64,000 bases of DNA from Marchantia polymorpha subsp. ruderalis (Eukaryota; Streptophyta; Marchantiopsida; Marchantiales; Marchantiaceae), in NCBI GenBank assembly GCA_037833965.1, contig AP031357.1, positions 20,294,001-20,358,000 of the forward strand, given 5' to 3'. Shown here piece by piece: positions 1 through 55,100 of the stretch (its first letter is position 1; every line of letters starts with the position of its first letter). The notes under the pieces are model-generated. The model saw only the letters and a list, made by a program, of their open reading frames with translations. It searched no databases and was not told where the DNA came from. The position numbers and the translations under genes were made by a program.

Positions 1-1540
1 TGCGTTACATTGCTTCTCTGAAGCGCAGTACCTATTTGTAGGAACTCATTAGAATCATTTGTATCATTTTGTGAGCTCGCGTCATCTATCTCTTTCTCGT
101 GTTCGTTGGGTCTTTGGTATATTCTTCATAGATCTAGTGTAACGGCTGAGCTGAAAGTGCAAATAATTAGTTTTCAAAGTACTTATGTTGTTGGCGCTAT
201 TGGATTCTCACAATCTGGTGTACAGACAGTGAAACATTGCCCTCATACGCTAATGACGTGGAAGAACAGATGCCCCGTTTCAAAATTGTGGCTTACTTCG
301 AGCTCGCTCAGCATGACGGTATACCTCCGACCTCATCTACACCAAAACCGTTGGAGTTACACAATCTTGATCGCAGTATGTGATAGCCATCATGTCATCA
401 CATCGAAATCCATCACCGTCTACTCACACTCGTGATGTACATACCCAGGGTCGTCAGTACTTCTTCGAACTCCGTCAGCCAATCGGACCTGTCATGTTTT
501 GTTGGCAGAAGGACCTCTTCTTACACTCTCCGCTGTCTATAAACCTCCTGTGCTTGGGAAGTCTCAGCTTTATCTCGTGTGCCGGAAGTAAAACTCTTGC
601 AGTCGTTCACGATACTTCCAGTTATCTCGAATACAGCTTGTGTATCTACCCGGACGAAACCGATGAGCATTCTCCGAACAACCCTCTCAAGCGGAGTGGA
701 AAAGTGACGATAGGTTCTGCGAGGACAAGCTGGACGGTGACGTTCCTTTTCCTCATCAAATCATTTCTGAAAGTCTGCGATGCAATGCCCACAACACAAC
801 GATTGTATTTCCGTAGAATAGCTAGCTACCCTGTAACACAGACCTTTCGGTGACCAAAGAAATATGTATTAGGGATAAAACTATGATCGGGAAGCCTTGG
901 CCTTTATTCTTGGGTAATGGACGATTCATCGCCTCGTACTTTTAAGATCTACAGCTGAAAGCTTTCAGGGAAGCAGACGTCTTTCCACGACTGTTGAGCA
1001 TATGAAGTGGTTCCACATGCGTTAGAGATACTGGAATCCTTAGGGTAGAGCACAGTTAGAGGTCAAGATCTGCTAAATTTAAGGGGGTTGAATCCGGTAA
1101 TTAAGGGAGCAGAGGGTAGAATCAAGTAAGTTACACCTGTGACAATGAGGAGGAGACCTCTCAGTTCAACAGTGATTCGAAAGATGCGCTAGATATGGAA
1201 CAGGTTCAACTTGAAGAACAGTGAACATTAATTTCAAGACGCCGAAAACTCAACACTGGAGAGGGGACACTGGCGTAGATCGGAGGAAGATGACAAAAAC
1301 AGTAGGAATCCGAGGTTCATGATGCTGCTGCATGCATCCAATTCTAGGGCAATCATGCACTGTATATGGCAGAGAGAACAGGCGAGAGAGACAACAAATG
1401 CTTCTTAATTTCGAGTCAGACCGAGTCGCTGCGAGACTGACGGAATGAACTACTTGACCAGTGAAGCCGAAGAGGCATGAACGAAGGAAACATGGATCGA
1501 ATTCCAGGCACAGAGTTCACTTCTCTCCGTCGACTCGGAT
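1..1540. other. No gene recognised
   Basis: Mixed-composition sequence. Open frames of 109 and 157 codons occur on the plus strand (106-435 and 380-853), but neither resembles a family I know, and they overlap in different frames. I see no convincing intron-exon structure. It could be the 3' part of a gene beyond the left edge, UTR, or spacer. Confidence 0.4.
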
Positions 1541-1723
1541 CTACTCAACAGGCCTGATCGGCCAGTGACGACAACATGCGACGTAATTGCTGATGTGCCA
1601 GAAGGGATCGAAATATGCACCCAACACTAAAACTAAAACTCCAGCAAGACCTCCGACTTGCAGTGGATTACGGGACATGATTACATGTAAGGCTGTGTCC
1701 AAAGCCTCCAGCATGCTCTTCAT
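1541..1723 (-). CDS. Possible short exon or small membrane protein
   Basis: A 60-codon reading frame starts MKSMLEALDTALHVI and contains one hydrophobic stretch (GGLAGVLVLVLGAYF) that could span a membrane. A splice-acceptor-like CAG lies just upstream of the ATG, and the GC-rich, promoter-like island at 1750-2560 lies on its 5' side, so it might be the first coding exon of a minus-strand gene. I could not find further exons downstream and do not recognise the family. It may equally be a chance ORF. Confidence 0.15.
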   Translation of the reverse strand: MKSMLEALDTALHVIMSRNPLQVGGLAGVLVLVLGAYFDPFWHISNYVACCRHWPIRPVE

Positions 1724-1749
1724 ACCTGCGCTCTGCGCGATTATGTCTC

Positions 1750-2560
1750 TCTCGAGAACTCACGTCGGGCTTATCGCGGAACGAGAGAGTCGCCGCGTTC
1801 GCCCGAAGCACCATCGAATGCCGATGGCGCCAGCACAAATTAGGGTCCGGCCGGCAACGGTCACTCGGCTGGCCGTGTGAAACGATCCCGAACCAGCCCC
1901 AGCTCCTTTGTTTTGAATTTTCAAAGCTCGCTCCCTCGCCCTGCCTTCGTCCGCTCCGCTCCTCACCGCGCCGCACCGCACACACACCCGCACCTTTTTT
2001 TCCGGCTCCGCGACGAATCTTTTCCACGTCGCTCGCTCACCTGCCCCGCCTACTACTCTACGGTGCCTTCACGTTCTTTCCGAGCATCGGGAATCCGGGT
2101 TTATGCTGCGCCATGCAGCGCGAGCGAAGATTTGGTCGAAGATACGTTGCCTCTTTCGGAACGAATAAGCACGTACGCACGCACGTCCGGCAGATCGAAT
2201 GCCGAACGGAACTGTCCGAGTTCCGGCTTCGCTCATTCGCACAGGCAGGCGACGACGGCGACGACGACGACGACGAAAGGTAGACAACCTTCGGTCGCGC
2301 GCATGTTGGAGTCTTGTCGGAAAGATGCCGCATCGACGATCGAGAATGTCTTCTTCACGTTTGCAGCTCGTCGAGCCAATCGCAGCGTACAGCACACAAT
2401 CGGAGTGTGTGCTGTGTCATTGACGCCGGTACAGATGCCCATTTCAGACTACGGTTCGTACGTGATAACATTCTCGATCTGCCGACTGGTGTGGACATGT
2501 TTGACCAGGTCTCCTGTCCCGCAACTTCTTCAGATAAAGTAGCGGTCTCTTCAGGGATCG
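1750..2560. promoter_or_regulatory. GC-rich promoter-like island with (GAC)n repeat
   Basis: Sharply more GC- and CpG-rich than its flanks. It contains CA/CCG-rich stretches near 1979-1995 and a GAC trinucleotide repeat at about 2250-2276. Long overlapping ORFs on both strands (including poly-Arg and poly-Asp frames) are by-products of this composition. The most economical reading is a promoter or 5' leader, but the direction of transcription is not shown by the sequence. Confidence 0.3.
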
Positions 2561-5500
2561 GACGGTCGGTTTGTCAGCAAAGAGCGGCCTTCGTCCGAAT
2601 GCGAGGCATTTATCATATCGTACAAGTCCAGACTCGAGAGTCGAGTCCAGTTTGGGAATGTATGTCAGTAAGCTTCAGAATTGTACAACCGGTCCTTTAT
2701 GTGACTCCATTTAACGTATGCTGCTTCACTTCAAGAAACTGACTTGTAGTCTTATTTCTCTAAATGGAAAACTTTGCTTATTGACGAATGTCCAATATTA
2801 TATCTTCTGGATTAAGTGCCTACAGTAACATGAGCAGATCTCATTTCAGTAAAATAAATTTATATCGTTAGATTTTGTCACGTTTGTACGAGAAAACCAT
2901 ATGTACAGTTTTGAACAGTTTGTCTTTGGAAGATGTCACCAAAAAGTCTTTCTAAGCCTGATTGATGTACTTTTTAATGTGTTGTCAAAGGCGACACTTG
3001 GTAATGAATTCATAGTGTGGTTGTTTTTTGTCATGATTTGATTGGCTAGCTTGTCATCGTCCAATATTACTGTATGACATGATATCACATATCATGTCAT
3101 ACAGTAATATTGGAAGTGTTGAAGTTTTACAAGTTTTATATAGTACAATCAAACAAGTCAGAGCTTTTTGACAAATAGACTTGAAGAGACTTTCTCGAAA
3201 GATCTTTTAAAATAATGGTGGTAAACTGGTTGTCACACGGAATAGGAACACATTGTATTCATGCAGGTACAGTTTGAGTGAGTAAGGAAATCGATCGACA
3301 GCTTTAGATAAAGTATACTTTTTAGTATCATATATGCACCGATAGTGTTCACTCCTAAAATTTTGTGTTGATGGATTGTATCGAAAATTGTGTAACTCGT
3401 AAAGCAAGATAGATCTTCTACTTTTCAAACAACATAGTATCGTCTTTGCATATGTGTAGTAGGAGTAAAAGATCCCATAGTTGATGAACAATAGTCAATA
3501 TATAGTACTACAAAAGGCTTGAAGAAAGTCTCGCTGAACCTTGAGATGAGAAGACACGAAGTGAGCTTCTATAATATCTTTTATTGTGTGTAGGATTTGA
3601 TCTAGTTGTTTCAAATTGGTTTATTTTCTGAAGTCACCACAAAAAATAGCTGACTTCAAAACTCTACATATATCTAAATATATATATATATATAGAGAGA
3701 GAGAGAAAAAGTAATTTCAAATCACATGTAATGATATCAACAGCAATTATAGCGCTGAAGTTGCATGGTTAGAAATTGTTATTGGCTGAAGGACATAATT
3801 CCATGATACTTTTAATTCAAGTATAAAGAATCTAAAATTGAAGAACAAAAGATGATTTTTTTCAAATTGAGTGTGAAAATATGTTACTCTTCTTAAGACA
3901 GAAGTGCTCAAACTCCGTTTAATTATAAAAAGGTCAAATTCATAAGTTTTTTCCATAATCTTGTTACGTTTTGGATGAAAATATTTCCGTTACTTTGTAA
4001 ACGAGACATCTAAGTGATTAATTAATTTATCCAATCTACTTTGTAATCTAACTGTGATCAAGTTTGAAATATCTTACTTTTTGAAAAATTTTGGAAATTT
4101 GAGATGATACTTTAAGAAGTCTCTTGATTTTAGATGAGCGCTAATATCTGTGGTTCGGCTAGTAATTTTAATGCTAAAATGGATAAGAAAACCACCGCTT
4201 GTATAGCAATATAAATTCTTATTTCATCCATTATAAAGAGAAGGCGTACATACTATCAATAACAAATATTGCAAATAGTTGTGGAAGTATTCTACACATG
4301 TGAAAGATAGATAATTCACCTGGATTAGTCTACTCAAAAATTTATGTACAAAGTATTGTAAGATTTCAAAGATTTATCATCAATAATTTTTTTCCACTTA
4401 TTGAAAAAATTAAAATAATGATATTGAATAATTATTATTTTTTAAAATCCAATTTCATAGAACTAACTATGGTTGTTTCATGAAATTTTTTCATGATTTT
4501 GCAATCAATGGATGAAGGAAATTCAATTGAGTTTGTATTGAAGCTTTTGCAACAAAAAAATTCACAATTTTGGTACAAAAATTATCCTTATTTAATATAA
4601 AATATTATCATAATTGATACTTGAATATTAATAACAAATCTTATAGAATAAAGACCATGCCAAGATAAGAAAAAGAATTATTGGTTGAAATATAAATTCT
4701 TGGAACTATCATGACTGCTGAAACATTAGAATAGAAAGTTATTGGTCATATGGATAGATTTTATATCAATTTTTAGTGCTTTTTTTTTATCTACAATCAA
4801 TACTTTTCAAAGATTGTGTACAAACATCCATTTTTAATTAGTTTCATGTTTATACCCACATATTTTTTTCCACCTTTCACATTCAAGATAGTTTAACTTT
4901 GTAACAGTTTGTATCACAATTGAACACTAACACCGAACAAGTCCAGTAGTATCTTTGAACCGAAGATCAATTATATGTTTAACAATTTTATGACAAGGTT
5001 CTAAATATCACAGTTTTCACATTTATGCTAAAGGATTAAGTTACTTTTCTAACCGTCAAAGCTAACATCTGCTTTCGTAAGATAATAGATTATGTTCGTT
5101 TCAACATTTTCGCCAAATTAACCTTCCATTCAAGTGTGGCCGGGACTTTGAAGTACTTCGTGACACACATGATGTCAAAGAATAGCCTCTCGTAAATCAA
5201 GCGAAAAGGTGGCTTACAGCTATGATGGTGAGAATGTACATAAGAACCGGTCAACATTTGAGAAAAACCTCTCGTTTTTAACGGAAAGGTAGTAAAGTAT
5301 GACCAAAATAGCGATTTAATTACCCATGACTTAATCGGGAATCCTCCCTGAGAATTGACGGAACTTAGCATTCATTATAATTTCACAAGTTTCATAGGAA
5401 TATACCTTCGTGTTTTCAATGGCTATGGGAATGTGTATAGAATATAATAGTAACACTTGCAAGTGGAACTAAACAGAAGATGAACCGGGATCGTAGTAAT

Positions 5501-5790
5501 ATGCTGTAGCGAAGAACGCATGAACATCAAATTAGGTTCTGTATAGACATAAGAATGATACGAAGAACTTATCAAGTTTAAACATAAATAAAAGAAAGAT
5601 TATATTATCAATCAATATCATGACAGTAAAGAATATATTGCATGTGCACAGTCTCATGTAAGATAATCTTCATCAGAAAACTTATTATAGATTTGATTTA
5701 TAACTATTTTTTAAAAGTAATGTTTAACCTTGAAAATAATTTGATTAAATATACTATAATCTTAAAAAACCTTTCAAATTACACTTGATT
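2560..5790. other. AT-rich intergenic spacer
   Basis: Long AT-rich stretch with no ORF resembling a protein. It contains the hairpin at 3061-3113 and a (TA)n(GA)n microsatellite at about 3670-3706. Nothing else was seen. Confidence 0.6.
3061..3113. repeat. Perfect 25-bp inverted repeat (hairpin)
   Basis: Positions 3061-3085 are the exact reverse complement of 3089-3113, with only a three-base loop (CAC, 3086-3088). The arm begins CCAATATTACTGTATGACAT. No target-site duplication or protein accompanies it. It could be a collapsed mini-transposon end pair or a recent palindromic insertion. The loop is too short for a standard plant miRNA precursor. Confidence 0.85.
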
Positions 5791-8700
5791 ACCTGTACTC
5801 TTGGACGAATCTGATAATCTTTTAGAACAGCCAATGTTGTTACGGTGGAATGCGTTGCGAGTAGAAGCTTCTATTAGTACCGACGCCACATTCTTTCCAT
5901 CTGTCAGGCAAAGACATCCGATCCAAGCACAGCGTGGCCACCAAGTAGCATTAATCCGTTCCATCACGCCATGGGATCCCAACTGAATGTTCTAAAAGTG
6001 CCAATCGGTCATCTTCTCCTCCACTCGCCTGCCGTCTCGATTCTGATCTACGGTAATCCCACTCCGTCACGTTGTTGGTGAATCGATGTTGTTCACACAT
6101 GTCTTATTCAGATTGCTACACGACCAACAGATTTCCGATTGTCCGGTCTTCACTCAATCCCATTCGCTTTGTTTCTTTGAACCCATCCGTCTAGCAGCTA
6201 CTTCTTCGTAGCGCGACTACATTGCATTGATCATTGTCCGAGACACCACGTCCTACCGACCTCGTCCACTGCCACTACATTAACAGGACTTCCACTTCCA
6301 CGCTAACTAGATCCCACCGCTTGCCATCTGAACGCCTTTTTCTTTATTCTACTCCTCGGCCTGAACCGAGCCGTCGACCCCACCGGCCCGGCCCATTCAT
6401 CCAACTCCAGTCCTCGTAGCCATGGGGCCCTCCGCTGTCCGCCTCATCGATCGCCACTTCGTTACTCATGGATTGGCCAGCAGCCGCCCTATGGGGGCGG
6501 TAGGGGCGGGGAAGGCGGGCGGAGCTATACGCAAGCAGACCCTCTTCACGTAGTCGATATACTGTAGGGAATTAATATGATCACTCCGTGAAGAAAGCAC
6601 ATGCAGGGGGCGGGGGAAATTCCGGTCTTGAGAGAAGTGGTGCCTGGAGGCGAGGCGAGGCTTCGGAATGGGACTGGGACATGTACAAATACTTGCTTAG
6701 CTCTGCTGAGCTGAGTCTGGGCATGCAAGGCCGAGCTTTTATACAGGGCGAGCCAATGTTCGTTATCAGTACAGCGGTTGAAATTAAAGAACCCCAAGCG
6801 AACGCGTATAAAATTATTCATGGTCCTTCCCTCGCTCCTCCAAGTGCTGAGCAGCTGAGAATTGGTTGAATTTTACTGTACGCAGTCGAGAGGGATGGAG
6901 GTAGGGAGCGAGGCAGTGATTGAGTGCGACGGGTCCTGCAAGAAAGTCAAGTGGTCAACCTGACTCACAGCAGCCACTCCGATCCACTTTCGATGTTATA
7001 CCCCTGTCTATATCTCCCTCTCCCTGTCTCTGTCCCTCTCGATAACAGTAATCTTCTCCTGCAGACAGACAGGCAGCCAACGAGGCTCGGTTCCGTTTGC
7101 TTGGCTCTAACAAACAAACAACAATCAACGCTTGGTTACCCACAGATCACTCTATCATTCTGATACTGAGACGCCAAGTCAGCCCTCCTCCTCTCCGTCT
7201 ACCTCGAACAGCAAAAACTGCTCAGCCCAGGAATGCGCGAAGCACGAAAAGAACGAGGACAAAGAGAATTTTCACGCGATGGACTTAAATCTGTTTCTCT
7301 GGGTGGTGCGGCTGGCTATTCCATTTGCACAGAGAATAAATATGTGGTTGGTTGAGCGGGCTGGGTTAGGATGTTGTATATAGTGCGAGTATTGTACCGA
7401 GAGTCAGACCGGTCCTGCAGCAGCAGCTGTGAGCCAATCCCCGAGGCTGTGGTAGCAACAAGAGTGGTTTAGCCTTAATTTTACGTAGTCGCCTCGTTTC
7501 CATTCCCTCAGTTTGATATTCCGGATGAGACTGACAACTGTATCCTTTATTCTTAGCGACCCCCACAAACCAGGAATCTAGTGCTTAGCATGTAGACGTG
7601 GAAAACCATCCACACCGTTCATCGATATCCTTTTGACTTCAGAAATGTTGTGAATTTTGGGAGCAGAAGCAAGATCTGTTTGGGGAATAGAGCTGGGCAG
7701 CCAGGCCAGGAGGCATAGGTCAGGCCAGAGCCCCCAGTAGCCAGGCCAACAGCGAGCCTTCTCAAGTAGATCCCAGAAGTGTGCTGCTGCTGCTGCTGCT
7801 GCTGCTAACTCCTAGCTACCGGTGAGCTACAGTTTCGGCCTACGCACAGCTCACAGCCCACAGTCAGTGCAGGCAGGTCGGGGGCGCTTGAGTGAGACCA
7901 GGCAGAGCTTCTCGGATTTCAATCTATCTAAATTTTCCTCCCGTCCCATCTCTCACTCTCTCTCTTCTCTCCTCTCTCTTCCATCGCTCCTCCTGTTCTG
8001 GTCCGTTCTCCGGGCCCTTTGTTCGCTTTTCGATCGCTGCTGCTGCTGCTGCCGCTGCTGTCTGCAGATGCTGGTAAGGAAAAGTAAAGGAATGAAGACC
8101 ACTACCATTAGCACCCTCGCCTCCTTTGGGTGCGCGCTACTTTTGACAACGTCAATTCCCCCCCTGTCTGATGGTCGCCAACTTCTGCTTGCTGATCATG
8201 TTGTAAGAGCACCCTTTCTCACCTCACCTCCTCACCACCTTCCTTCCTTCTTTCCTTCCTCTTCCTTCCCTCCATCTCTCTCCCTCCTTGCTCTCTTCAT
8301 TCCTGCGTCCTCAATTTCCTTCCTTGCCAACTCGACTCGTGTATTGTTCTATTTAACACTCTGTGTGGGTCACCCGGGCCTATGGATCCCGTCCTTCCAA
8401 TCCGCATCTCAAGCCTGAACAGAAGGTTTTTTAAATGCTCATCAAACTCCACGCAAAGTTATAGTTCACTGCTGAAACTTAGGATCCGTTTGTGCCATGA
8501 TTGTGGATGTGGGAACTCGTCGGTTCCTCTGACGTCAGGATGTAGCATATAGCAACTCGTTGACTCGTCCACTTTTAGCTTTTTCCTGCTTTGGGGAAGC
8601 TACGGCTGGCGAAGTCCATGGGTTTTGTTTCTAGCTTTCCACTCTCTTGCCCTCGGAATAATCTATCATTCTTCCCATGTTTTCTATGTATCATATCTAT

Positions 8701-9599
8701 CATTCAGCACGTACACTGTCCCACTGATGTGCAATTTCAAGCGCCACGGTCTTTGATCGACTCACGAGTGCTCTCTTTCATGATTCTATGCATGTGTATG
8801 CCTGTGAGGACGTGTACAGTTGCCGTTGTGCCTCGTCCCGGTGTTCACTCTCTTGGTCTATGGGATGTGGCGAGTGAGCGGCAGTCCGATGGGTTTTCCT
8901 GCCCCTACCAAGAAGGCAACCTCGTTTTCGAATCAGGTACGTACGAACCCACCCCGACGGACGGATGATGGTGTGACCGATTGATTGAGTGGCTGTCTCA
9001 GTCCGCCTTCTCGCCCGCCTGTCTATCTATCTACTCCATCTACTCCGAAGCCACTTGTCTCTGGACGTGATTGACTGCGATCATCAGGCCATTCACTTTC
9101 TCAACCAGACGTTTTCGTGCTCTCGCATCTCCTCGTGCTCTTTCTTGCGCTTGCCAGCCGCAGCCCGACCCGACCTGACCCGACCCGACCCCGAGAGCAG
9201 GATTAGCGTGGTCCGATGTGCGAATCTGAATTGCATTTTCAATTCCACTGCATGCTTTTATGACGACCAGTGGACCCACCCATTTCCCTTCCACCCGGAG
9301 ACGGCGAAACGAAGCGAGGTGCAATGACTATCAGATTGTTGCTGGTTCAAAGCTGGAAGGTTGCCCCTCATTATCGTGATATAGAATTGAAATTGCGAGG
9401 GCTGAAAGTTGAGAAATTCGAACAGGCAGGCTCTGAAGGGACTATCTTGTGCCGTTGGACGCACCAAACTTGGCTATGGCTGTTGTTGATTCTAGCGGCG
9501 TTATCCGTACTTAGAATGTGAGTCCCTGAAAATGCTGCGGACTGACAATGGGAGCTCGGTTCCTAGAAATGATATCAGTCTCGTGTGTGAGCTGTGCAG
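5790..9599. other. Upstream/leader region of the DCL1-like gene
   Basis: Composition turns GC-richer at about 5.8 kb. The stretch has pyrimidine-rich tracts (7950-8010, 8220-8290), CTG/TGC repeats (7782-7806 and 8038-8062) and many small ORFs. CT-rich tracts are common in plant 5' leaders, so this probably holds promoter and 5' UTR, perhaps with leader introns, for the gene starting near 9.6 kb. No helicase, PAZ or first RNase III sequence of a full Dicer could be found here. One possible coding leader exon lies at 9324-9518. Confidence 0.4.
7782..7806. repeat. (CTG)n microsatellite
   Basis: About eight uninterrupted TGC/CTG units lie in the presumed leader of the DCL1-like gene. A second, imperfect CTG/CCG run is at about 8038-8062. 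These are simple repeats with no coding meaning visible. Confidence 0.8.
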
Positions 9600-9683
9600 G
9601 TCACGTACTCCACGGTATCAATTTTGCCATGGGCTCCGGCACCACGTCTGGTTGCAGAAGACCTCGAGGACGCAGATGACGAG

Positions 9684-11537
9684 ATGGAGCTGAGCGACGA
9701 CGGGCACGAAGAGCTCGAGATTCAGAAGCATAGAGAGAAGTCGATGGAGCGGATGGATGAAGATGTGTGCGCCATGCAGTTGGAGGACGCTGACGTCGAA
9801 GAAGATTTCGAATTATCGAGCAGACGCTCGGACGCGATGGGGGATGGGCTGCAGGACTCGTGGAGGAGTTGCAATTGGGTCGCCCGCCCCGTCCCCCTGG
9901 AGCTCAACAGCGCTGCGCATGCAATAAATACTCACGGCCAGATTGGACTCGATGTGCTGGATAATGATTTCCAGGCCATCGACTTCGATGGTCTGGAAGC
10001 AGCAATCGGTTACAGGTTCAATGCACGCGCTCTGCTCGTCGAGGCTATCACTCATGCCTCTCGACTGTCCTCCGATTCGCCTTGCTACCAGCGCCTCGAG
10101 TTCGTGGGCGACGCAGTGCTCGACCACCTCATAACCAAGTACTTCTTTGTTAATTACAAAGACCTTGCTCCCGGTCGCCTGACGGATCTCCGCCAAGCAA
10201 CCGTCAACAATGAAAATTTTGCTCGAATTGCCGTGAAGCATAAGTTTCACATTCATTTGCAGCATGGATCAGCAGCTCTACAAGCCAAGGTGAGAATGAG
10301 ATGATGTTCCATCCCATCGCCATCGCCATCAGCAGATCCTACAACGTTTCTAGCTGTGGCTCTAATATTACTGGATGTACTTAGCTCGAGCTCTCGAGTC
10401 GTTGAATTTGCCTCGGAATCGTTTACCACTGCGAGAAAATGCTCGCGGAAAAGTACGTGGTGTAGGCTGATCATTGCGCGAACGAAACAACTGTGCAGAT
10501 CCACGCCTTCGTAAAAAATATTCAGGCCGAACTGGATAGACCGGGCTTAAATGCGTTCGGCCTCGGCGACTTCAAAGCTCCTAAAGTGCTCGGCGACATT
10601 CTGGAGTCCATAGCTGGAGCAGTGTTCCTGGATGCAGGTCTGGATACTGAAAAAGTTTGGCAGGTCAGCTCGTCTCTGCCCGTGGACTCTCATGACGAAA
10701 ATCGCTGGTCTGGCACGTGGATTTCATGAGCGTGAGCATGCCCGATCATTGGTACTAACGCTGAGATGGTCGTGCAGATTTTCGAGCCGCTGCTGCAACC
10801 CATGGTCACGCCCGAGACGCTGCTGAAGCACCCGGTCAGCGAGTTGCAAGAGCGCTGCCAGCAACGCGTTGAGGATCTGAGATACCACGCTTATCGACGA
10901 GACAATTTGACGTTTGTGGTGGAAGTGCATGTGAACGAGGAATTCATAGCCGTGGCGGCAAACTCCAAGAAGAAGATGGCACAAAAGCTCGCCGCTCGGA
11001 ACGCGCTGGTGATTTTGAAGAAGCGAGACGCACGGCTCGAAGCAGCCGCCGAGGAGGACGCCTCCAGCGATGCGGCCGAAGTGCTTCCTCCCGTTCCCGT
11101 CACCCACAGCAACATGCCCGTCGCCCAGCAGAACTTCTACGACATGTGCATGAAACGCAACTGCAAGCAGACACTGTACGAGATCTGCATGTCGCAGAAA
11201 TGGCCCAAGCCCGAATACAAGTAAGCGAGACTTCTCGAGTCCGAGTCAGTCTTCTCGCACTGTGCGGATGGATGTCTTCTTGCTCGAAGCTCTAATCTGA
11301 TTCTGAGTAGGGTCTCGGCTCGTAGCTTTAGAATATTGTCGATTGATGAAGGGGCATGTCGTGTTCAGGTGTGTTTCTGAAGTGGGCCTCGCTCACGCGA
11401 AGAAATTTACCTACTCGGTGAGGATATTCAGAGACCATGGGTGGAGCGAAGAACTGCCAGGCGAGCCCATGCCCAGTGTGAAGAGGGCCAAGGATTCGGC
11501 TGCGGCGACCCTGCTACAACACTTGAAAAGATGGTAG
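9684..11537 (+). CDS. DCL1: Shortened Dicer-like 1 protein: RNase IIIb plus two dsRBDs
   Basis: Four coding exons, 9684-10289, 10499-10663, 10778-11220 and 11369-11537, give 460 residues from the ATG at 9684. Residues 1-99 are acidic and unlike Dicer. Residues about 100-258 are a DCL1-type second RNase III domain. The metal-binding set is intact: E139 and D143 in RLEFVGD, D235 and E238 in LGDILES. A first dsRNA-binding domain (about 276-340, KKMAQKLAARNAL) and a second (about 370-458, GEPMPSVKRAKDSAA) follow, both close to DCL1. Family members make miRNAs from hairpin precursors in the nucleus using two RNase III domains within one chain. Here helicase, DUF283, PAZ and RNase IIIa are all absent, so it would need to dimerise or pair with another protein. 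The start is uncertain: exon 1 opens at an acceptor at 9598-9599 and its frame is open upstream of 9684, so another exon (perhaps 9324-9518, which splices in phase) could add residues. Confidence 0.92.
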
Positions 11538-14500
11538 AGGCGTATTATTTTACAACGTCATCAAAATTGAGTACCTTTTGATCAGGGAGCTTCCCTTCTG
11601 CTCATCACTACAGCACCACATTTTGACAGTTTCAAGGGACCATTTTAGTCATTCACAGAACAATTCAAATTTGTATATAGGATTCTTGGAAGATCTAGAC
11701 AGTCGCATAGTGGTGAGTAGAAAGGAAGGCTCAAGAATACACCAATTGTAAGGTAAGTGGACACCGGAAGAAAGGAAGGGATTTTCACGGTGATAAACCA
11801 AACACATTCTTGTTGGAGTGTAAACTTGGCCTCCGGAGGGATGGAAACTCCCCCAATGTTTGGAGATCACCGTGATACTGGATCAGAAGAGTGTTACAAT
11901 TTTGTCCATCTTGTACAGAGACCACCGCCAGCATGTAAAAAGTAGAAAGTTTTGAACTGGAGGTCTGGATGGAAATTTCCTCCTTTTTTTAGCTGCATTT
12001 ATCAGGACTCGTGTTTCATTTTTTGTTCTCCAAAATGAATAAGGATCTCTGTCTTAGTAAGTTACAACTTCTCCAGCGTGTTTCTCACGAGGTTTCCAGC
12101 TGACAAGCACGCGCCTCTCGTCGTCGCCCTGAGCCGACATTGTGTTCTCTAATGATCAAGCAGCCGTTTCGTCAATTCCACATGATCCGCGTGTTGTAGA
12201 TCTCCATGGCTTAGGTAGTCGAACCTGGACGAAGGACGAAATGGATGACAGAAGCGCGTCAGATCCCAGGTCCAGGCTTTTGTCTTCTTTGTAGAGCACG
12301 ATATCGTTCGAGGCCTTTGGCACGCACGAGTCTCAGAATGCCTCTTCGATTCAAGAGGCTTCTACAAATGTACACGCGTAATATGTCCACCCACGCACCT
12401 CACAAAGCTGTATTCTGCTATGTGTCGTCGACATTGCGAAACTAGTCCAAAACCCAGATGCCGCAAAATTAAGTGCGTATCCCTGCCCTGCAAGGGATCC
12501 AAACAAGTTCCACCGGTTCAGCATGGTTGCAGGTGAAGCTCTCGCAAACCTCCAATTCCAACTTTGAATTTCCAGACGTAAGTCAGTTAGAGGCGGGCCC
12601 TCGGCCATGGTCGGTTATCCCCTGGCTCCCCCAGAGCTTGAGAACAACCCTGACAAGCCTCAGAGTTGATCATTGAAAATCCCAAGGAGCGGCCCAGTCT
12701 CGTGTAAAGCTCATTAGACTTCTTTTCTGGACATGTATACAGATACCATAACCCGCCCTTGAGTGCTGTACGTTTATTCTGCGCCCCACACCCTCGAATC
12801 TTGACAAAAATATGCAGATCCCGGCTGTCGCTCACACGTTTGAAGCCAAGCGACAATCAAGTTTGTGAAGTGGCGCGGCTGCACGGCGGCGATCTGGGCG
12901 TACACCTTGGGTCAAGTCCTGCGGCCACGTACGTGTAGATGCAAAGTATATGCGACCGATCTCTCAGGTCTACGGTGCACAAACTCTCGCATACCGTTCG
13001 TGGAATAAGTTCACATGCAAAGTGACGAGGATCAGATACACCGTAGATGACACCCACATATCTCTCGTCTCTGAAACACACGCATCTCGCTCATGGTTTG
13101 CAAATCAATTTATTAACCCCTCGTTGCTGTACTCTCTCGATATATTCGGATCTGTCCGACCTTCGTGATTCCTGGGACTTTGGCCAGTCGATACACTAAA
13201 TCGCGAGGTAGTCTGCCATGGGTGCGATGACGGTGGCGGTTGTAGCCAGTAGTGTGCGAGAGTGCAGGCAGGGAGGTGCGCTCTCCCTCGGCAGGCCAAT
13301 CCTCGCGTTGTGTCGACGGTTTTGAGATGTGTCGATGTTTTACTGTAAAGGGTGTTGAAAAGATTCCAGGAAACCTCAATTGTGGCATGGTGGGACTACG
13401 TCGACGCATTGTAGTGTATAGACAAGCATGCGATGTCTGCAAGCTTTTGACGTCCAGTGTACAGAGTTCTGCCAGATAACAGATTTGCTGCTTTTGCGCT
13501 CCACGACTAACTAACCGACTCACAGCGTCTTAGCTTGGTCTACATGTATAGGAATAGATTATTCCCGTCGGCAGGAAGTTTTTGTCTTGTCAGACTCGAT
13601 CTTGTAAGAGCATCATCTCAGCATCCTCTTGACCTGCATCATACCTCGGAGAGACGTACAGTACAGTAAGGACATGACAAAGTCTCCGATACTCGGCCTA
13701 CGTTCGCTGTGATTTGGGATAGTCTTTTTGCCAGATGCCTGGATCCTCAAAAAGGCAGAAGATATGGGCTTCAGAACACTAACTTTGAACAATTTAAATA
13801 GAAGAATTAGACCTCGGCCAGTTGTTCCAAGTGTAATGCGTAAGATAAATGTGCGCTCAAAGGTTTTGCACTCCTCGAATTAATTCGTACAACATGCTAG
13901 AATTTTCACACTTTCATGCTTCAGTCTGAATTAGAGAGATATAACACGTATGCTGATTGCGGAGTTGACACAATTTTTACCTCGAACCGAAATGGGAAAG
14001 ATCATCTTATGAGCCCTGCAGTGAAAGCTGGAGACTCGTTTTCTCTATATCTGCACAAGAAACCTAATGTGTTGTCGAGTGCTTGGCAGGTCCTGGATCC
14101 TTCTGACCAAGTCAAGCGAAAAATCAGAGTTACGTGTTTGTGTTGCTAAGTTGCTGGCGTGGTCACTCATGGTCCGTCAGATGACCATGAAAAAACATGA
14201 GCATTGCCCCAAGGACATTTGTTGTAGTATAGAAACCAAGCTGTAAGTTGGTTACATAATGCTTCAATTGTTCTGACAATTCTTGTACTTCAGCATTCCA
14301 GCTCACAATGCAGCGCTTTTGGATGCAGAATTCTCACGAAAGTCACCCACAGATCATTCAAACTCTCACAAGCTGCACATGCCGACTAATACAGCAATGG
14401 ATGTAGATCTGCTGTTCAAACAGTTTGCTTTTCATTTGTATGTTGTTCCGATTGGCTGTTGCCTTCTGGAATCATTGCAAGTCCTCTACTCGAAATCTCA

Positions 14501-21719: not shown

Positions 21720-23251
21720 ATGCCACCGACCATGCCGGAGCCGCTGTCGATAATATGGAGCATTGCAATGCAGCTGAAGATCCTAATTGGGGCAAAGAAT
21801 TCCCTGAAGAAGGACTGTGAAAGTCTTCTGAAGGTGATCGAGAAACTTCACGCGAACCTGCAAAGACTCGAGGTATTTATCGCCCACGCTTCGTCGCCTT
21901 CGTCCCTCGGCAGATGTGTTTTCCATCCTCAGGTTTGTGGATGGCTCGCCGAGGCCGATCGCCCATCGGCTGATTTCTTGGGCATTTATGTAGCTTGATT
22001 GTATCTATGGCCTGCAGGCTCTTATTATCTGCTCTCATCGTGACTAGGGAAGCCCCGATGTTGATCAATTCGAAAGGGTCTTGAATAAAATTCGCATTTC
22101 CTCCACTAGATGTTATGCTATGCTGGAGGCGATTGAGGCTCGGAGCTGGACGGATTCGCTCTTGAATCAGAAACTGTCTTTCTTCAACGAGAAGCCGAGC
22201 GACCTCATCAAGAAGCAACAATCCGAGTTTTATGATCTCATAGATGAACTACTGGGCGAGCTCTGTACAAGAGTAAGTCACTATCCCTGGCTGTCGACCG
22301 AACGTGATTTGTTGTGGAAGTTTCTGTGCACAGGCATTCACCATCCGGAACCTGAGTCCGGAAGTTTGCTGGTGACGCACCATAGATTCCTGAGTGATCT
22401 GACAATGAGAGACATGGCCGGAGTACTCGAGTGTCTTTCACGCCCAGGTCTCTGATGTGTGCACTTTTTTCTTCGGGAAATGTGCACAGGGAGTCAGAAA
22501 GGCAGAAACGGACGACATCTATGAAGCCGGGTCGAAAGAAACGCGACTGTTGGGAGTTTCTAAACTGAGGGCAGTTCCAATGTGCGGGAAAAATGACGAT
22601 GCCATCCTTCTGAGCGGCGAGAAAATTCGATACAAAATCATCGAAGACACCATAGAAAACGTCGGCGTGGTCTACACGTTAGAGATGGAAATCAAGAGCT
22701 TCGCACCTGGCCTTTACAACTGGCTTCTGCAGGATCGGACGCATCTGAGTGCCATGCTTGCGGTAAACAGCAGCTCCGGTCAATCGACTCGCGTACTGCA
22801 GATCACAGAGGAGGACAAAAGCTCCGGAGGTGACAACCCCACAGCCTGCATTTCAGACGAAGACGGAGTGGTAGCACACGTCCAAACCAAAAACCAGTCC
22901 TGGTTCAACAACGCCGGAACTATTTTAATGCGGGATCACTTCAGGCGGTCTCTCATACTTAGGCTCAGAAACGGATACAAACCTCAGATATACGACGCCG
23001 AGATTCTTGTCCGAAAAGACAGGCTCCCGTCGGACGATTTGCTGAAATTGCGTATTCTCGGTAAGAAGTTCGAAGACCTGACCTACTACAAATGCGACAC
23101 GGAAGAAACGGGGGAGGTACTCGCCGTTTATAGACACCGCAAGTCCGAGGCCTCAGGTTTGCTACATCTCTTGGGAAGGGCAAACCAGATGGAAATCCAA
23201 ACCATCATAGTTGCCAGTTTTGCTGCTCTGGGACTGACCAGTGATTTCTAA
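21720..23251 (+). CDS. Unknown protein, helical N-terminus and beta-rich C-terminus
   Basis: Three exons (21720-21872, 22048-22272, 22490-23251), all joined in phase 0 by GT-AG introns, give a 379-residue protein ending with TAA. I do not recognise the family firmly. Residues 1-126 look all-helical: a hydrophobic start (LSIIWSIAMQLKILIGA), then KKDCESLLKVIEKLHANLQ and further amphipathic helices. This recalls the four-helix N-terminal domains (RPW8, MCAfunc/HeLo-like) of plant membrane-associated and cell-death proteins. Residues about 150-379 look beta-rich and end in a hydrophobic helix (EIQTIIVASFAALGL), a layout reminiscent of LURP-one/tubby-like barrels, with CISDEDGVV in the middle. Both resemblances are weak inferences. 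There is no signal peptide. Codon use and splice signals support a real gene. A second in-frame ATG (21732) is an alternative start. Confidence 0.72.
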
Positions 23252-26235: not shown

Positions 26236-26684
26236 TTGCCCGATGTAGCCAAGCAAGCGCAAGCTCACGATTTTGCCGTCGAGCTATGTGCGCTTCCTCC
26301 CGACTTGTATAGAGCCATTGGCAAACTACTATACTTGGATATAGGGGTAGGAATTTGTGAACAATCTATGGCACGAGGACAAGGCGACAAAGCTATAGGT
26401 AAATTATGTTATTTGGATATAAGGTGGAAGAATTCCTCGACAATATGTGGCACGAGGAAGAGTGAAGCGGATGTTGCAATAGTGGAGTATTAGTGTCATG
26501 TCCATATGTGTTGTTAGCTAGTAATTTTAGATCACAATTAATTCTAGGTTATCTTAGATTAATGTCCACTCTTGTTGGAAAATATAATTGCGTGAAGACT
26601 CAACAAACCTTCAGTTTTTTGAGTTTAGCCTTCAGCGTAAGTAGTAGCTCTCAATGGATTAGCTATGATGTCTCGTTAACATGA

Positions 26685-26938
26685 CATGGATTCTACAAAT
26701 TGTGGAGAGAACTCGGATCGTTGGCAAGTGTTTTCATGCTGGTGGGAGCCGATGAAATTGGTTTGGGCGGTGTGAATCCATGGAACTAGCGATCGAACTA
26801 GAGAACAAGAGCATGGATTCTACAAATTGTGGAGAGAACTCTTATCGTTGGCAAGTGTTTTCATGCTGATAGGAGCCGATTGGATCGGTTCAGGCGGCAT
26901 GAATCCATCGAACTAGAGAACAAGAGCACGCAGCATAC
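26685..26938. repeat. Two-copy tandem repeat, 127-bp period
   Basis: The block starting CATGGATTCTACAAATTGTG at 26685 is repeated from 26812. Both copies share GAGAGAACTC.. ATCGTTGGCAAGTGTTTTCA and end near GAACTAGAGAACAAGAGCA. The copies differ by scattered substitutions and a small indel. It lies within the retroelement relic. Confidence 0.8.
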
Positions 26939-52101: not shown

Positions 52102-55100
52102 CTAACTAATAATCTCGCTCAGGAACGAGTTGTAAGTCTCGCTGTTCTCAAGCAGCTCGTCGTGCAGACCCAAATCCGAAAGAGCGTCTGGATCGAAAGT
52201 GTCCAGAAACGACGACAATCTTTCCTTGTTGCCGCCAGGGCGGTGGTGCGGGTGGTGGTGCTGGTCCGACATGCCACTTGCCTGCTGCTGCTGCTGCTGC
52301 TGCTGCTGAGCATGATGATGATGCTGATGCTGATGATGCTGCTGCTCTGCGTACTCAGAGTTGTGCCAAGATGATTGTTGTTGGTGCGGTTGTCTTTGCG
52401 AGCTACTCGTTTCGCTCACACTCCTGCCATTATCATGCCTCGAGCCCGCTCCTCCTCCTGCTCCACCACCACCTCCCGCTGCCGAATCCGCCATCCCGTT
52501 GCTGCCATTGGCGCAAGATTGGTGCGGCGGCGACGACCTAGGAGACGGATCCTGGTCTCCCATCATTCCGCCGTGCGAGTGCAAGCTGCCGACGAGGCCC
52601 GGCGAGTCGGACGACGAGCTCGGGCTCAGAGGCTGCCGAGAGAAGGACTGCGAATGCTGCAATTGGTTGGACAGGCTCAGGTTGCTGAGCACCGAAGGCG
52701 ACGAGGAGAGGGGCGAGCCGTTTTCCGACGCTGTGACGGACGGCAATTTGGACAGCAGATTGTGCAAGCTCGACATTGAAGGCAGCAGCGAGTGATTGCC
52801 GCTGAGCCCCGTGTTCAGAGCCTTGGGAGGGGACGGGCACTCGGGCGCCCGATTGAGCTGGCCGCAGTTGAATCGCGGACTGCCGGAGAAGTTGATGGCG
52901 GGGGAGAGGAAGGGGAAATCTCGGCCCGTGCCCAGAGTCAGAGGCACGTCCTCGTTCGGGCGCTTGATGCCCAGCACGCCGCTGCCGAGCTGCTTGCTGT
53001 GCGCCGTCAGCCGGAAGGGGTCGGAATTCGACCTCGTGAACAAGCCGATCATCGAGGCCGGGTCCTTGGCATTATTTGTGTTGCCTGCCCAGCATCCGGC
53101 CTCGCTCGGCGGCGAGCCGTCCAGCGAATTGTTGCGCTTGATGCTCGGGTGCGGTGACGGATGCGGCACGAACACTCCCGGAATGCTTTGCAGATAGTTG
53201 AACTTGCGCTGCATCAGAATGACGAAGTTGAGATCCTCCACGACCTGGATGAGATCAAATCCCAAGCGTCTGCGAGTTAGTCCTCCCGCAGCCCATGGCC
53301 TTCCCTCCTGCCCTCCCTTCTTCTCTTCGCCGCTCATTGCGGCCCGAACGACCAGCTCGCTCGCTCGCTCGGCCATGAGGCGAATTGAGAGCATCACAGT
53401 GCGCGTCAGGCTAGCACTGCTAGCAGGGCACCCGGTGCTGGTCAGGACGAATAGCAATCCCATTTGCATTTTCAATTGCCCCCGTCGTAGGACTTCACGA
53501 GCTGGCGATACTAGTGCACTGAAGCTTGAGTGTGCGACGTGCCTCAATCGGACCATGCGCTATGCATAAAAATACTATTTCATGAACTGAAACATGCCGC
53601 AGACTTAGCGTAATGCCGGAAATTTGGCCAAGTGTTGGTCTGTAAGCACCTTTTTTAGGGATCCGAGTTGCACCAGCCCTTCTCGAACTGAAATTACAGC
53701 CACAGTCTGCACCGACAGTGCAATGAGAACATCAGAAGCATGTCGAGCGATGTTCGTAGCTTTTCGGGTCCAGAGAAATTGTGGCCACTGCACTGAGCGT
53801 GGAGTCGCTTCGGTCGCACAGCAGCAATTATTAGAGACCGCAAAGCAATGTCAAGGGAAGTGCAGCCGAGGGCAGCGCTTGAATTTGGTCAGAGCTCCAC
53901 GTACCTGGATGCCCGCTTTGAATTGAGCTTCCCAAGTGCGTGGATGCTGCAAGACAACAGCACAAGGCCCACAATCAGACCGCATACACCTCAAGACGCC
54001 TGAATCAGATCTCAAAGCAGCACTCGCCACGTTCAATTGCACGCCGTTCCCGTCTGCAGCCCGCTTACCGGATCGAGAGAGCCGTGCCATGGAGACAGAA
54101 AGCTGATCTCGTGCTCCAAAGGCTCTCGATACACCCACTTGTGACTGTTGTCCGCAGCCACCTTCCCCATCAACCTGAGATTGACAACAGACGACGATCG
54201 TTGTGGGAAATTGCTACTGAAACGACAATTCCCTTCGACATTGGCAGCCCGGGGCTCTCAGCAAGCCAGAGACACACCGCTTGCAGATCTCAAGCGGCCC
54301 TAGTGCAAGACACGCATTACACAGCCAGCCTCGGGGGGACAATCCAATAGAGAGCAGTGTGCTGGGTGTGTGCTCGAGCCTACCCTTCGCCGTAATTGTA
54401 GACTTCGTGCGACATTTTGAAGAACAGCTCGGGATGCATTGTGGGCTCAGCAGAATCGTCAGTGTGGTAAGAGTGGGCCCCGTATCGAGCTCCGGGCTTG
54501 GCTTCCCTCCCGGCCGTGCAAGCCGAGAAGTCGCAGAAGCCATCCTCCCACACTAAAATCCTGACATTCACAACAGGTGCACGTGCACACGCGTTAATTC
54601 CAAGCACAAGCCAGCCCCCCACGACCGCTGATCGATCTGCTTCACCATAACCAATGACCAATCCTCTCCAAACTCGAAAAATTTCGCAGACTGCGGGCTC
54701 AGTACCAATTGCGTTTGTTGCCTTTAGATCTGTCCATGACTCCGCCTTCATTCTCCCACCTGTACACGACACCAATCTCACAATCAGAGACCTTCAGCGG
54801 ACACAGTCAGAGCGAGCACGGCCTGTCAGCGACCCGGCACATTCTCTCGTCCCCACAGAGCTTCACGTGTCCGAAAGCGAGGTCGGCTCGAGAGCAGGAA
54901 TTGGGACAAGCCTGGCATCGGGAAAGATCTAGAAGCGGAGTGTGCAGCTACGGGGCCTAAGAATGGAAACGAGATTCGGGAGGAGCAGGAGGCGCACTTG
55001 GGAGGGGGATAGTTGCGCGGAAGAATGCGCCAGAAGACAGCGTACACCCACTGCGTGTCGCAGCACAGCCCGCGGAGGGTGTGCTGCAATACGTGATTGA

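What the first reader, a model, noticed from the sequence alone, without database searches (positions are those of the whole stretch)
9684..11537. DCL1 reduced to one RNase III domain and two dsRBDs
The exons match the C-terminal part of plant DCL1 closely, with both RNase III metal-binding pairs kept, yet helicase, DUF283, PAZ and RNase IIIa are missing and an unrelated acidic leader takes their place. A Dicer normally uses two RNase III domains within one chain, so this protein would have to dimerise like a bacterial RNase III or pair with another DCL. Intact catalytic residues and clean splice sites argue that it is functional. Moss has a described minimal Dicer-like protein lacking the helicase, and I recall a short DCL1 paralogue in liverworts, but this form keeps even less than the moss one.
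Basis: partly seen in the sequence, partly recalled or inferred. Interest (0 to 1): 0.75.

Follow-up and report, generated by a model that had tools for sequence, protein, structure and literature searches.

The report
Liverwort one-RNase-domain DCL1 paralogue
A liverwort chromosome carries an old, intact duplicate of the plant microRNA-making enzyme DCL1, cut down to its last cutting domain and two RNA-binding domains, which probably works as a pair of identical subunits that cuts double-stranded RNA.

Summary
Four exons (9684-10289, 10499-10663, 10778-11220, 11369-11537, +) encode a 460-aa protein with one RNase III domain and two dsRBDs. It is an old paralogue of the full-length DCL1 on the same chromosome. 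They group at 96/96 support against Arabidopsis DCL1 and share three intron positions. Synonymous sites are saturated while pN is 0.175; 87 of 91 invariant columns and all four metal-binding acids are kept. No helicase, PAZ or first half of RNase IIIa was found in 29.5 kb upstream. The genome is probably Marchantia polymorpha or a relative; a review counts four DCL genes there, and I find five DCL-derived loci.

Main correction: the 'unrelated acidic leader' is probably the worn-down second half of DCL1's RNase IIIa, although a reversed control also beats shuffles. The breakpoint then lies inside a DCL1 exon.

Most likely it acts as a homodimeric RNase III, as mouse Dicer RNase IIIb-dsRBD does in crystals; Arabidopsis RTL2 and budding-yeast Dcr1 share its architecture. 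By descent it is a DCL1; by domain content it no longer meets the definition of a Dicer. Expression, dimerisation and products are untested.

The parts
9600..9683 (+). open stretch upstream of the first ATG, in frame; carries the W-A-P motif that aligns with the DCL1 RNase IIIa insert; 5' UTR or end of an unseen upstream exon
   Evidence: AG at 9598-9599 read directly
9684..9968 (+). acidic leader, coding-like base periodicity; probable remnant of the second half of DCL1 RNase IIIa
9684..10289 (+). exon 1: leader and first part of RNase IIIb, including E139 and D143 (codons 10098-10100, 10110-10112)
10290..10498 (+). intron 1, phase 0, same position as in DCL1
10499..10663 (+). exon 2: second part of RNase IIIb, including D235 and E238 (codons 10595-10597, 10604-10606)
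10664..10777 (+). intron 2, phase 0, same position as in DCL1
10778..11220 (+). exon 3: dsRBD1 (about 10829-11017), poorly conserved linker, first part of dsRBD2 (from about 11165)
11221..11368 (+). intron 3, phase 2, same position as in DCL1
11369..11537 (+). exon 4: rest of dsRBD2, ends QHLKRW-stop as the own-genome DCL1 does

Best explanation
An old DNA-level partial duplication copied the 3' end of DCL1, from the middle of the RNase IIIa exon to the stop codon, to another place on the same chromosome. RNase IIIa lost its first half at the breakpoint and its second half probably wore down to an acidic leader, while RNase IIIb and both dsRBDs stayed under selection. The product most likely forms a symmetric homodimer through its RNase IIIb domains, binds long or near-perfect dsRNA with its two dsRBDs, and cuts both strands leaving two-base 3' overhangs, without helicase- or PAZ-based measuring. 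It would therefore work like RTL2 or class-II RNase III: pre-cutting or degrading dsRNA, or processing structured RNA, rather than measuring 21-nt miRNAs. Shown here: descent, intact catalytic acids, purifying selection, and no helicase, PAZ or first half of RNase IIIa found upstream. Inferred: expression, homodimerisation, cleavage and substrate.
For: Tree with own DCL1 at 96/96 support; three shared intron positions and phases; pN 0.175 against saturated pS 0.90 over 340 codons; 87 of 91 columns invariant in both DCL1s, DCL3 and DCL4 are kept. GC by codon position of the leader (0.65, 0.35, 0.70) matches the core (0.61, 0.37, 0.65). PDB entries 2eb1 and 3c4b, Dicer chains of 200 and 265 residues, match at E=2.1e-37 and 4.9e-40; that they are the human and mouse C-terminal RNase III constructs is recalled. 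Mouse RNase IIIb plus dsRBD crystallised as a symmetric homodimer (PMC8138440, passage). RTL2 has one RNase III and two dsRBDs (PMC4687873, passage), and its RNase activity is regulated by its dimerisation state (PMC5985474, passage).
Against: No transcript, protein or small-RNA data were available. Only one plant genome could be searched, so conservation in other liverworts is untested. The gene evolves faster than DCL1: 41 residues are unique to it against 4 unique to own DCL1 and 26 to AtDCL1, of 239 columns, so constraint is weaker than on DCL1. The open frame continues upstream of the first ATG to an AG at 9598-9599, so an unseen 5' exon cannot be excluded. A catalytically idle dsRNA-binding role is not excluded.
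Confidence: 0.6

Rival explanations
1. A homodimeric 'inside-out' small Dicer like budding-yeast Dcr1: adjacent dimers on long dsRNA release small RNAs of fixed length that enter an Argonaute.
For: Same domain order, one RNase III and two C-terminal dsRBDs (PMC4521922 and PMC10328071, passages); both dsRBDs kept under selection (pN 0.18 and 0.20 against pS 0.84 and 0.87).
Against: Cooperative packing in Dcr1 may rest on features of the yeast protein that are not shown here; the yeast protein matched the first RNase IIIb exon only weakly (3rv1, E=0.00076).
Confidence: 0.15
2. It is a regulator without needed catalysis: it binds miRNA precursors or DCL1 partners through the DCL1-derived dsRBDs and competes with DCL1.
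For: dsRBD1 and dsRBD2 are recognisably those of DCL1 (55 of 79 and 53 of 82 aligned residues identical).
Against: The RNase III part is better kept (82 of 105 and 43 of 55 identical) than the dsRBDs, and all four metal ligands are intact; a pure binder would not need this.
Confidence: 0.12
3. It supplies an active RNase IIIb in trans to the reduced DCL at C7:12.78 Mb, whose own RNase IIIb has Gln in place of the last catalytic Glu.
For: GDLLQT in place of GDILES in the C7 gene, CAG codon read directly; no helicase matched in about 22 kb upstream of it.
Against: RNase IIIa and IIIb pair within one Dicer chain (established knowledge); no evidence of exchange; the C7 protein is very divergent (41% identical to the window gene over 231 columns).
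Confidence: 0.05
4. A decaying or unexpressed duplicate.
For: Faster evolution than DCL1; RNase IIIa already lost; no expression data.
Against: No stop or frameshift despite saturated synonymous sites; conserved splice sites and C-terminus.
Confidence: 0.08

Closest known systems
DICER-LIKE 1 (canonical; own-genome locus C8:15.32 Mb and Arabidopsis DCL1)
   Same: Direct descent: RNase IIIb, dsRBD1, dsRBD2, three introns and, with own DCL1, the C-terminal QHLKRW.
   Different: No helicase, platform, PAZ or first half of RNase IIIa found; leader diverged; GC-richer codons (GC3 0.65 against 0.45).
Arabidopsis RTL2 (RNASE THREE-LIKE 2)
   Same: One RNase III domain and two dsRBDs, no Dicer-specific domains (PMC4687873, passage).
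   Different: The window gene is derived from DCL1; descent of RTL2 was not tested here.
Budding-yeast Dcr1
   Same: One RNase III and two dsRBDs; works as a homodimer (PMC4521922, passage).
   Different: Presumed different origin; only a weak sequence match.
Moss MINIMAL DICER-LIKE (mDCL)
   Same: A reduced bryophyte DCL (PMC10721683, section 5 read).
   Different: mDCL is described as lacking the helicase and the Dicer dimerisation domain; the window protein keeps far less. The C7:12.78 Mb gene of this genome looks more like mDCL. No moss sequence was aligned.

Membership tests
DCL1 clade (by descent) | groups with DCL1 rather than DCL3 or DCL4 | tested here: met
   6-row tree, 96/96 with own DCL1; 7eld best PDB match
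Dicer / DCL (by domain content) | helicase and PAZ domains | tested here: not met
   one search is weaker, it missed the PAZ of two other DCL loci
Dicer / DCL (by domain content) | two RNase III domains in one chain | tested here: not met
   one Ribonuclease_3 stretch; no first half of RNase IIIa found upstream
RTL2-type / class-II-like RNase III (by architecture) | one RNase III and two dsRBDs, no Dicer-specific domains | tested here: met
RTL2-type / class-II-like RNase III (by architecture) | descent from the RTL lineage | not tested
   no RTL sequence was aligned; descent from DCL1 shown instead
RTL2-type / class-II-like RNase III (by architecture) | dimerises and cleaves dsRNA | not testable with these tools
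   needs purified protein
active RNase III | both pairs of metal-binding acids | tested here: met
   E139, D143, D235, E238; which residues are ligands is recalled
budding-yeast-type Dicer | releases small RNAs of fixed length | not testable with these tools
   needs in vitro dicing or small-RNA sequencing

The most novel reading that the evidence does not exclude
A plant Dicer has re-evolved into a homodimeric, one-domain enzyme: a DCL1-derived counterpart of RTL2 or yeast Dcr1, with its own small-RNA or dsRNA-clearing output, perhaps standing in for dsRBD-bearing RTLs that my RNase III searches did not find in this genome, or completing the half-inactive reduced DCL at C7:12.78 Mb.
Probability: 0.25. 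Interest if true: 0.75.

Novelty: new variant of a known kind. Interest (0 to 1): 0.52.

Why it matters
It is a natural experiment in undoing a Dicer: loss of the helicase, PAZ and one of two nuclease domains, with the remaining catalytic half kept under selection. If it dimerises and cuts, it shows how an RTL2-like enzyme can arise from a DCL. It also means that a model liverwort credited with four DCL genes (PMC10721683) has five DCL-derived loci, so its small-RNA genetics may have left one out.

Tried and rejected
Frameshifted relic: by eye, another frame of about 9840-9930 resembled the ADVVEALIG helix of RNase IIIa; the test gave p=0.305 (frame 2), so I dropped it.

Upstream exons: recalled Arabidopsis DCL1 gave no match at E<=1 in 29.5 kb upstream, and six pieces of the own-genome DCL1 gave four weak matches there, best E 2.2. 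The first half of RNase IIIa gave nothing convincing in window 1-9600 (best E 4.5), nor at DNA level in 8800-9599 (p=0.18) and 6000-8800 (p=0.70).

Leader homology, results against: the reversed leader also exceeds its shuffles (p=0.006; block shuffle p=0.023); matches to Arabidopsis DCL1 (p=0.139), DCL3 (p=0.103) and DCL4 (p=0.535) are not significant; the part after the acidic stretch alone has p=0.109, 0.048 and 0.029 by gap cost; the leader from its ATG alone has p=0.118 or p=0.016 (gentler gap cost). Hence 'probable' only.

Retroposed copy: rejected, the introns are kept. Short repeats in 4000-14500 gave no sign of a mobile element. Rfam listed nothing in the window at gathering scores. 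The sigma-70 and terminator scan does not apply to a plant and is not used. Six of the 15 frames of 170 aa or more in the window were scanned and matched no Pfam family at E<=0.01.

Full report
What is there. The window is G000:C8:20294001-20358000 of a 241-Mb genome in 9 contigs. DCL3 on C2, DCL1 and DCL4 about 0.4 Mb apart on C8, and Aquarius on C7 fit the Marchantia polymorpha gene numbers Mp1g02840, Mp7g12090, Mp7g11720 and Mp6g16570 in Table 2 of PMC9291395 (passages). Table 2 lists Mp1g02840 as a DCL1 homologue; that it is DCL3 is recalled, and the DCL3 and DCL4 labels of my loci are inferred.

Gene model. Exons 9684-10289, 10499-10663, 10778-11220 and 11369-11537 on the + strand splice by GT-AG into a 460-aa protein. 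Pfam gives Ribonuclease_3 at residues 136-249 and dsrm with two stretches, best at 387-457. The four metal-binding acids are E139, D143, D235 and E238 (motif positions; codons read); which residues are the ligands is recalled knowledge of RNase III.

Descent. The RNase III family matches ten places in the genome. With the first RNase IIIb exon as query, own DCL1 at C8:15.32 Mb is the nearest other place, 78% identical, of nine listed. In a 6-row tree of RNase IIIb plus dsRBD1 (window gene, own DCL1, recalled Arabidopsis DCL1, the DCL3 and DCL4 loci, the C7 gene; none dropped) the window gene joins own DCL1 with 96/96 support; the C7 row is a long branch. All three introns sit at the same codons and phases (0, 0, 2) as in DCL1, whose introns there are 99, 281 and 2606 nt. 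Both proteins end QHLKRW, recalled Arabidopsis DCL1 does not. The copy is therefore DNA-level and later than the split of the liverwort and Arabidopsis lines.

Selection. Over 340 aligned codons 240 residues are identical, pS is 0.90 (saturated, above the 0.75 expected for unrelated bases, with GC3 0.65 against 0.45 in DCL1) and pN 0.175. A single dN/dS cannot be given, but it is far below 1. Of 91 columns invariant in both DCL1s, DCL3 and DCL4, 87 are kept, against 61 in the C7 gene. In a neutral simulation on the DCL1 sequence 7 of 400 runs stayed free of stops at 0.1 changes per site and 0 of 400 at each of 0.25, 0.5 and 1.0. The gene does evolve faster than DCL1: 41 residues unique to it, 4 to own DCL1, 26 to Arabidopsis DCL1, 14 all different, of 239 columns.

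The leader. In frame and in order, it aligns with the second half of RNase IIIa in own DCL1: WAAPGVPP with WAPAP, the acidic insert with the acidic stretch, NWIG-IPVEF with NWVARPVPLEL. Anchored alignment is reached by 2, 0 and 0 of 3000 shuffles at three gap costs and by 15-residue block shuffles with p=0.0097, 0.0013 and 0. Local alignment gives p=0.005 and 0.0025, and with a gentler gap cost 0 of 1000 shuffles and block p=0.003. DNA alignment exceeds codon shuffles with p=0.003. Against: the reversed leader reaches p=0.006, and Arabidopsis DCL1 and the other DCLs give no significant match. Acidic composition explains part of the score. I put shared descent at about 0.75. If right, the duplication broke inside the DCL1 exon that holds RNase IIIa and the start of IIIb, about 82 residues into it, and the leader is a relic turned linker. 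Its codon-position GC (0.65, 0.35, 0.70) suggests that it is translated. The DNA similarity starts near 9629, above the first ATG, so either that part became 5' UTR or an unseen exon splices in after 9599.

Missing parts. Recalled Arabidopsis DCL1 matched nothing but these exons in the window below E=1 and nothing at E<=1 in 29.5 kb upstream. A genome-wide PAZ family search listed eight matches, none near; since it did not list the PAZ regions of the DCL3 and C7 loci, the tblastn searches carry the weight.

How it probably works. Two RNase III domains must pair to cut both strands. Mouse Dicer RNase IIIb plus dsRBD crystallised as a symmetric homodimer like bacterial RNase III (PMC8138440, passage, citing Du 2008); the title of Takeshita 2007, seen only in that reference list, reports homodimeric structure and cleavage for the human domain. 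The window protein is close to a natural version of that construct. Arabidopsis RTL2 has the same architecture (PMC4687873; PMC13103733), and its RNase activity is regulated by its dimerisation state through a disulfide (PMC5985474). RTL2 mutants and overexpressors show minor small-RNA changes (PMC13103733), a warning that a mutant here may look mild. Budding-yeast Dcr1 too works as a homodimer (PMC4521922; PMC10328071). All of these were seen as passages. I take RTL2-like dsRNA cleavage as most likely, Dcr1-like dicing as the boldest credible rival.

Other reduced genes. The C7:12.78 Mb gene keeps platform, PAZ and both RNase III regions, has no helicase match in about 22 kb upstream, and its RNase IIIb reads GDLLQT where the others read GDILES, GDIVES or GDLVES. 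Outside DCL loci and the window gene, two RNase III family searches found only C2:4.62 Mb, in a 300-aa frame that may be an RTL4/5-type protein (inference). I found no other gene with one RNase III and dsRBDs, but these searches score only the best candidates exon by exon, and no dsRBD family search was run.

Print. [quoted passage not shown] Which locus it means by 1b I could not check: the recalled number Mp6g09830 points to the C7 gene, while PMC9291395 and PMC9864873 use the name MpDCL1b for Mp7g12090, the canonical DCL1 (passages). Either way five DCL-derived loci are present and four are counted. It remains possible that 1b is the window gene. Searches gave no paper that, in what I opened, describes this locus; several listed papers were seen as listings only, and Csicsely 2023, Coruh 2015 and other unheld papers were not seen.

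Verdict. Real, old, under selection, and not described in what I could read; a new variant of a known kind. Its activity is the open question.

Noticed in passing
L010 (G000:C7:12772500-12782400), about 2567-7893: A second reduced Dicer-like gene: platform, PAZ, RNase IIIa and IIIb but no helicase match in about 22 kb upstream, and Gln for Glu at the last metal-binding position of RNase IIIb. Possibly the gene called MpDCL1b; resembles moss mDCL as described.
   Followed up: partly
L013 (G000:C2:4619500-4627400), 3639-4541 (-): A 300-aa frame with a weak RNase III match (27.8 bits), possibly an RTL4/RTL5 (RNC1) relative; no dsRBD search was run on it.
   Followed up: partly
L029/L009, last intron of DCL1: The last intron of own DCL1 is 2606 nt long, against 148 nt in the window gene; it was not searched for an intronic miRNA like those in moss and Arabidopsis DCL1.
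   Followed up: no
literature: The name MpDCL1b is used for different genes: PMC9864873 gives it to Mp7g12090, the canonical DCL1, while PMC10721683 lists it apart from the DCLs with Arabidopsis-like domains.
   Followed up: partly
52102-53559 (-): A 485-aa open frame rich in Ser, His and Gln with no Pfam match; could be part of a neighbouring gene.
   Followed up: no
22409-23251 (+): A 280-aa open frame with no Pfam match.
   Followed up: no
26678-26916: Tandem repeat of 127 nt, 1.9 copies, 86% matches.
   Followed up: no
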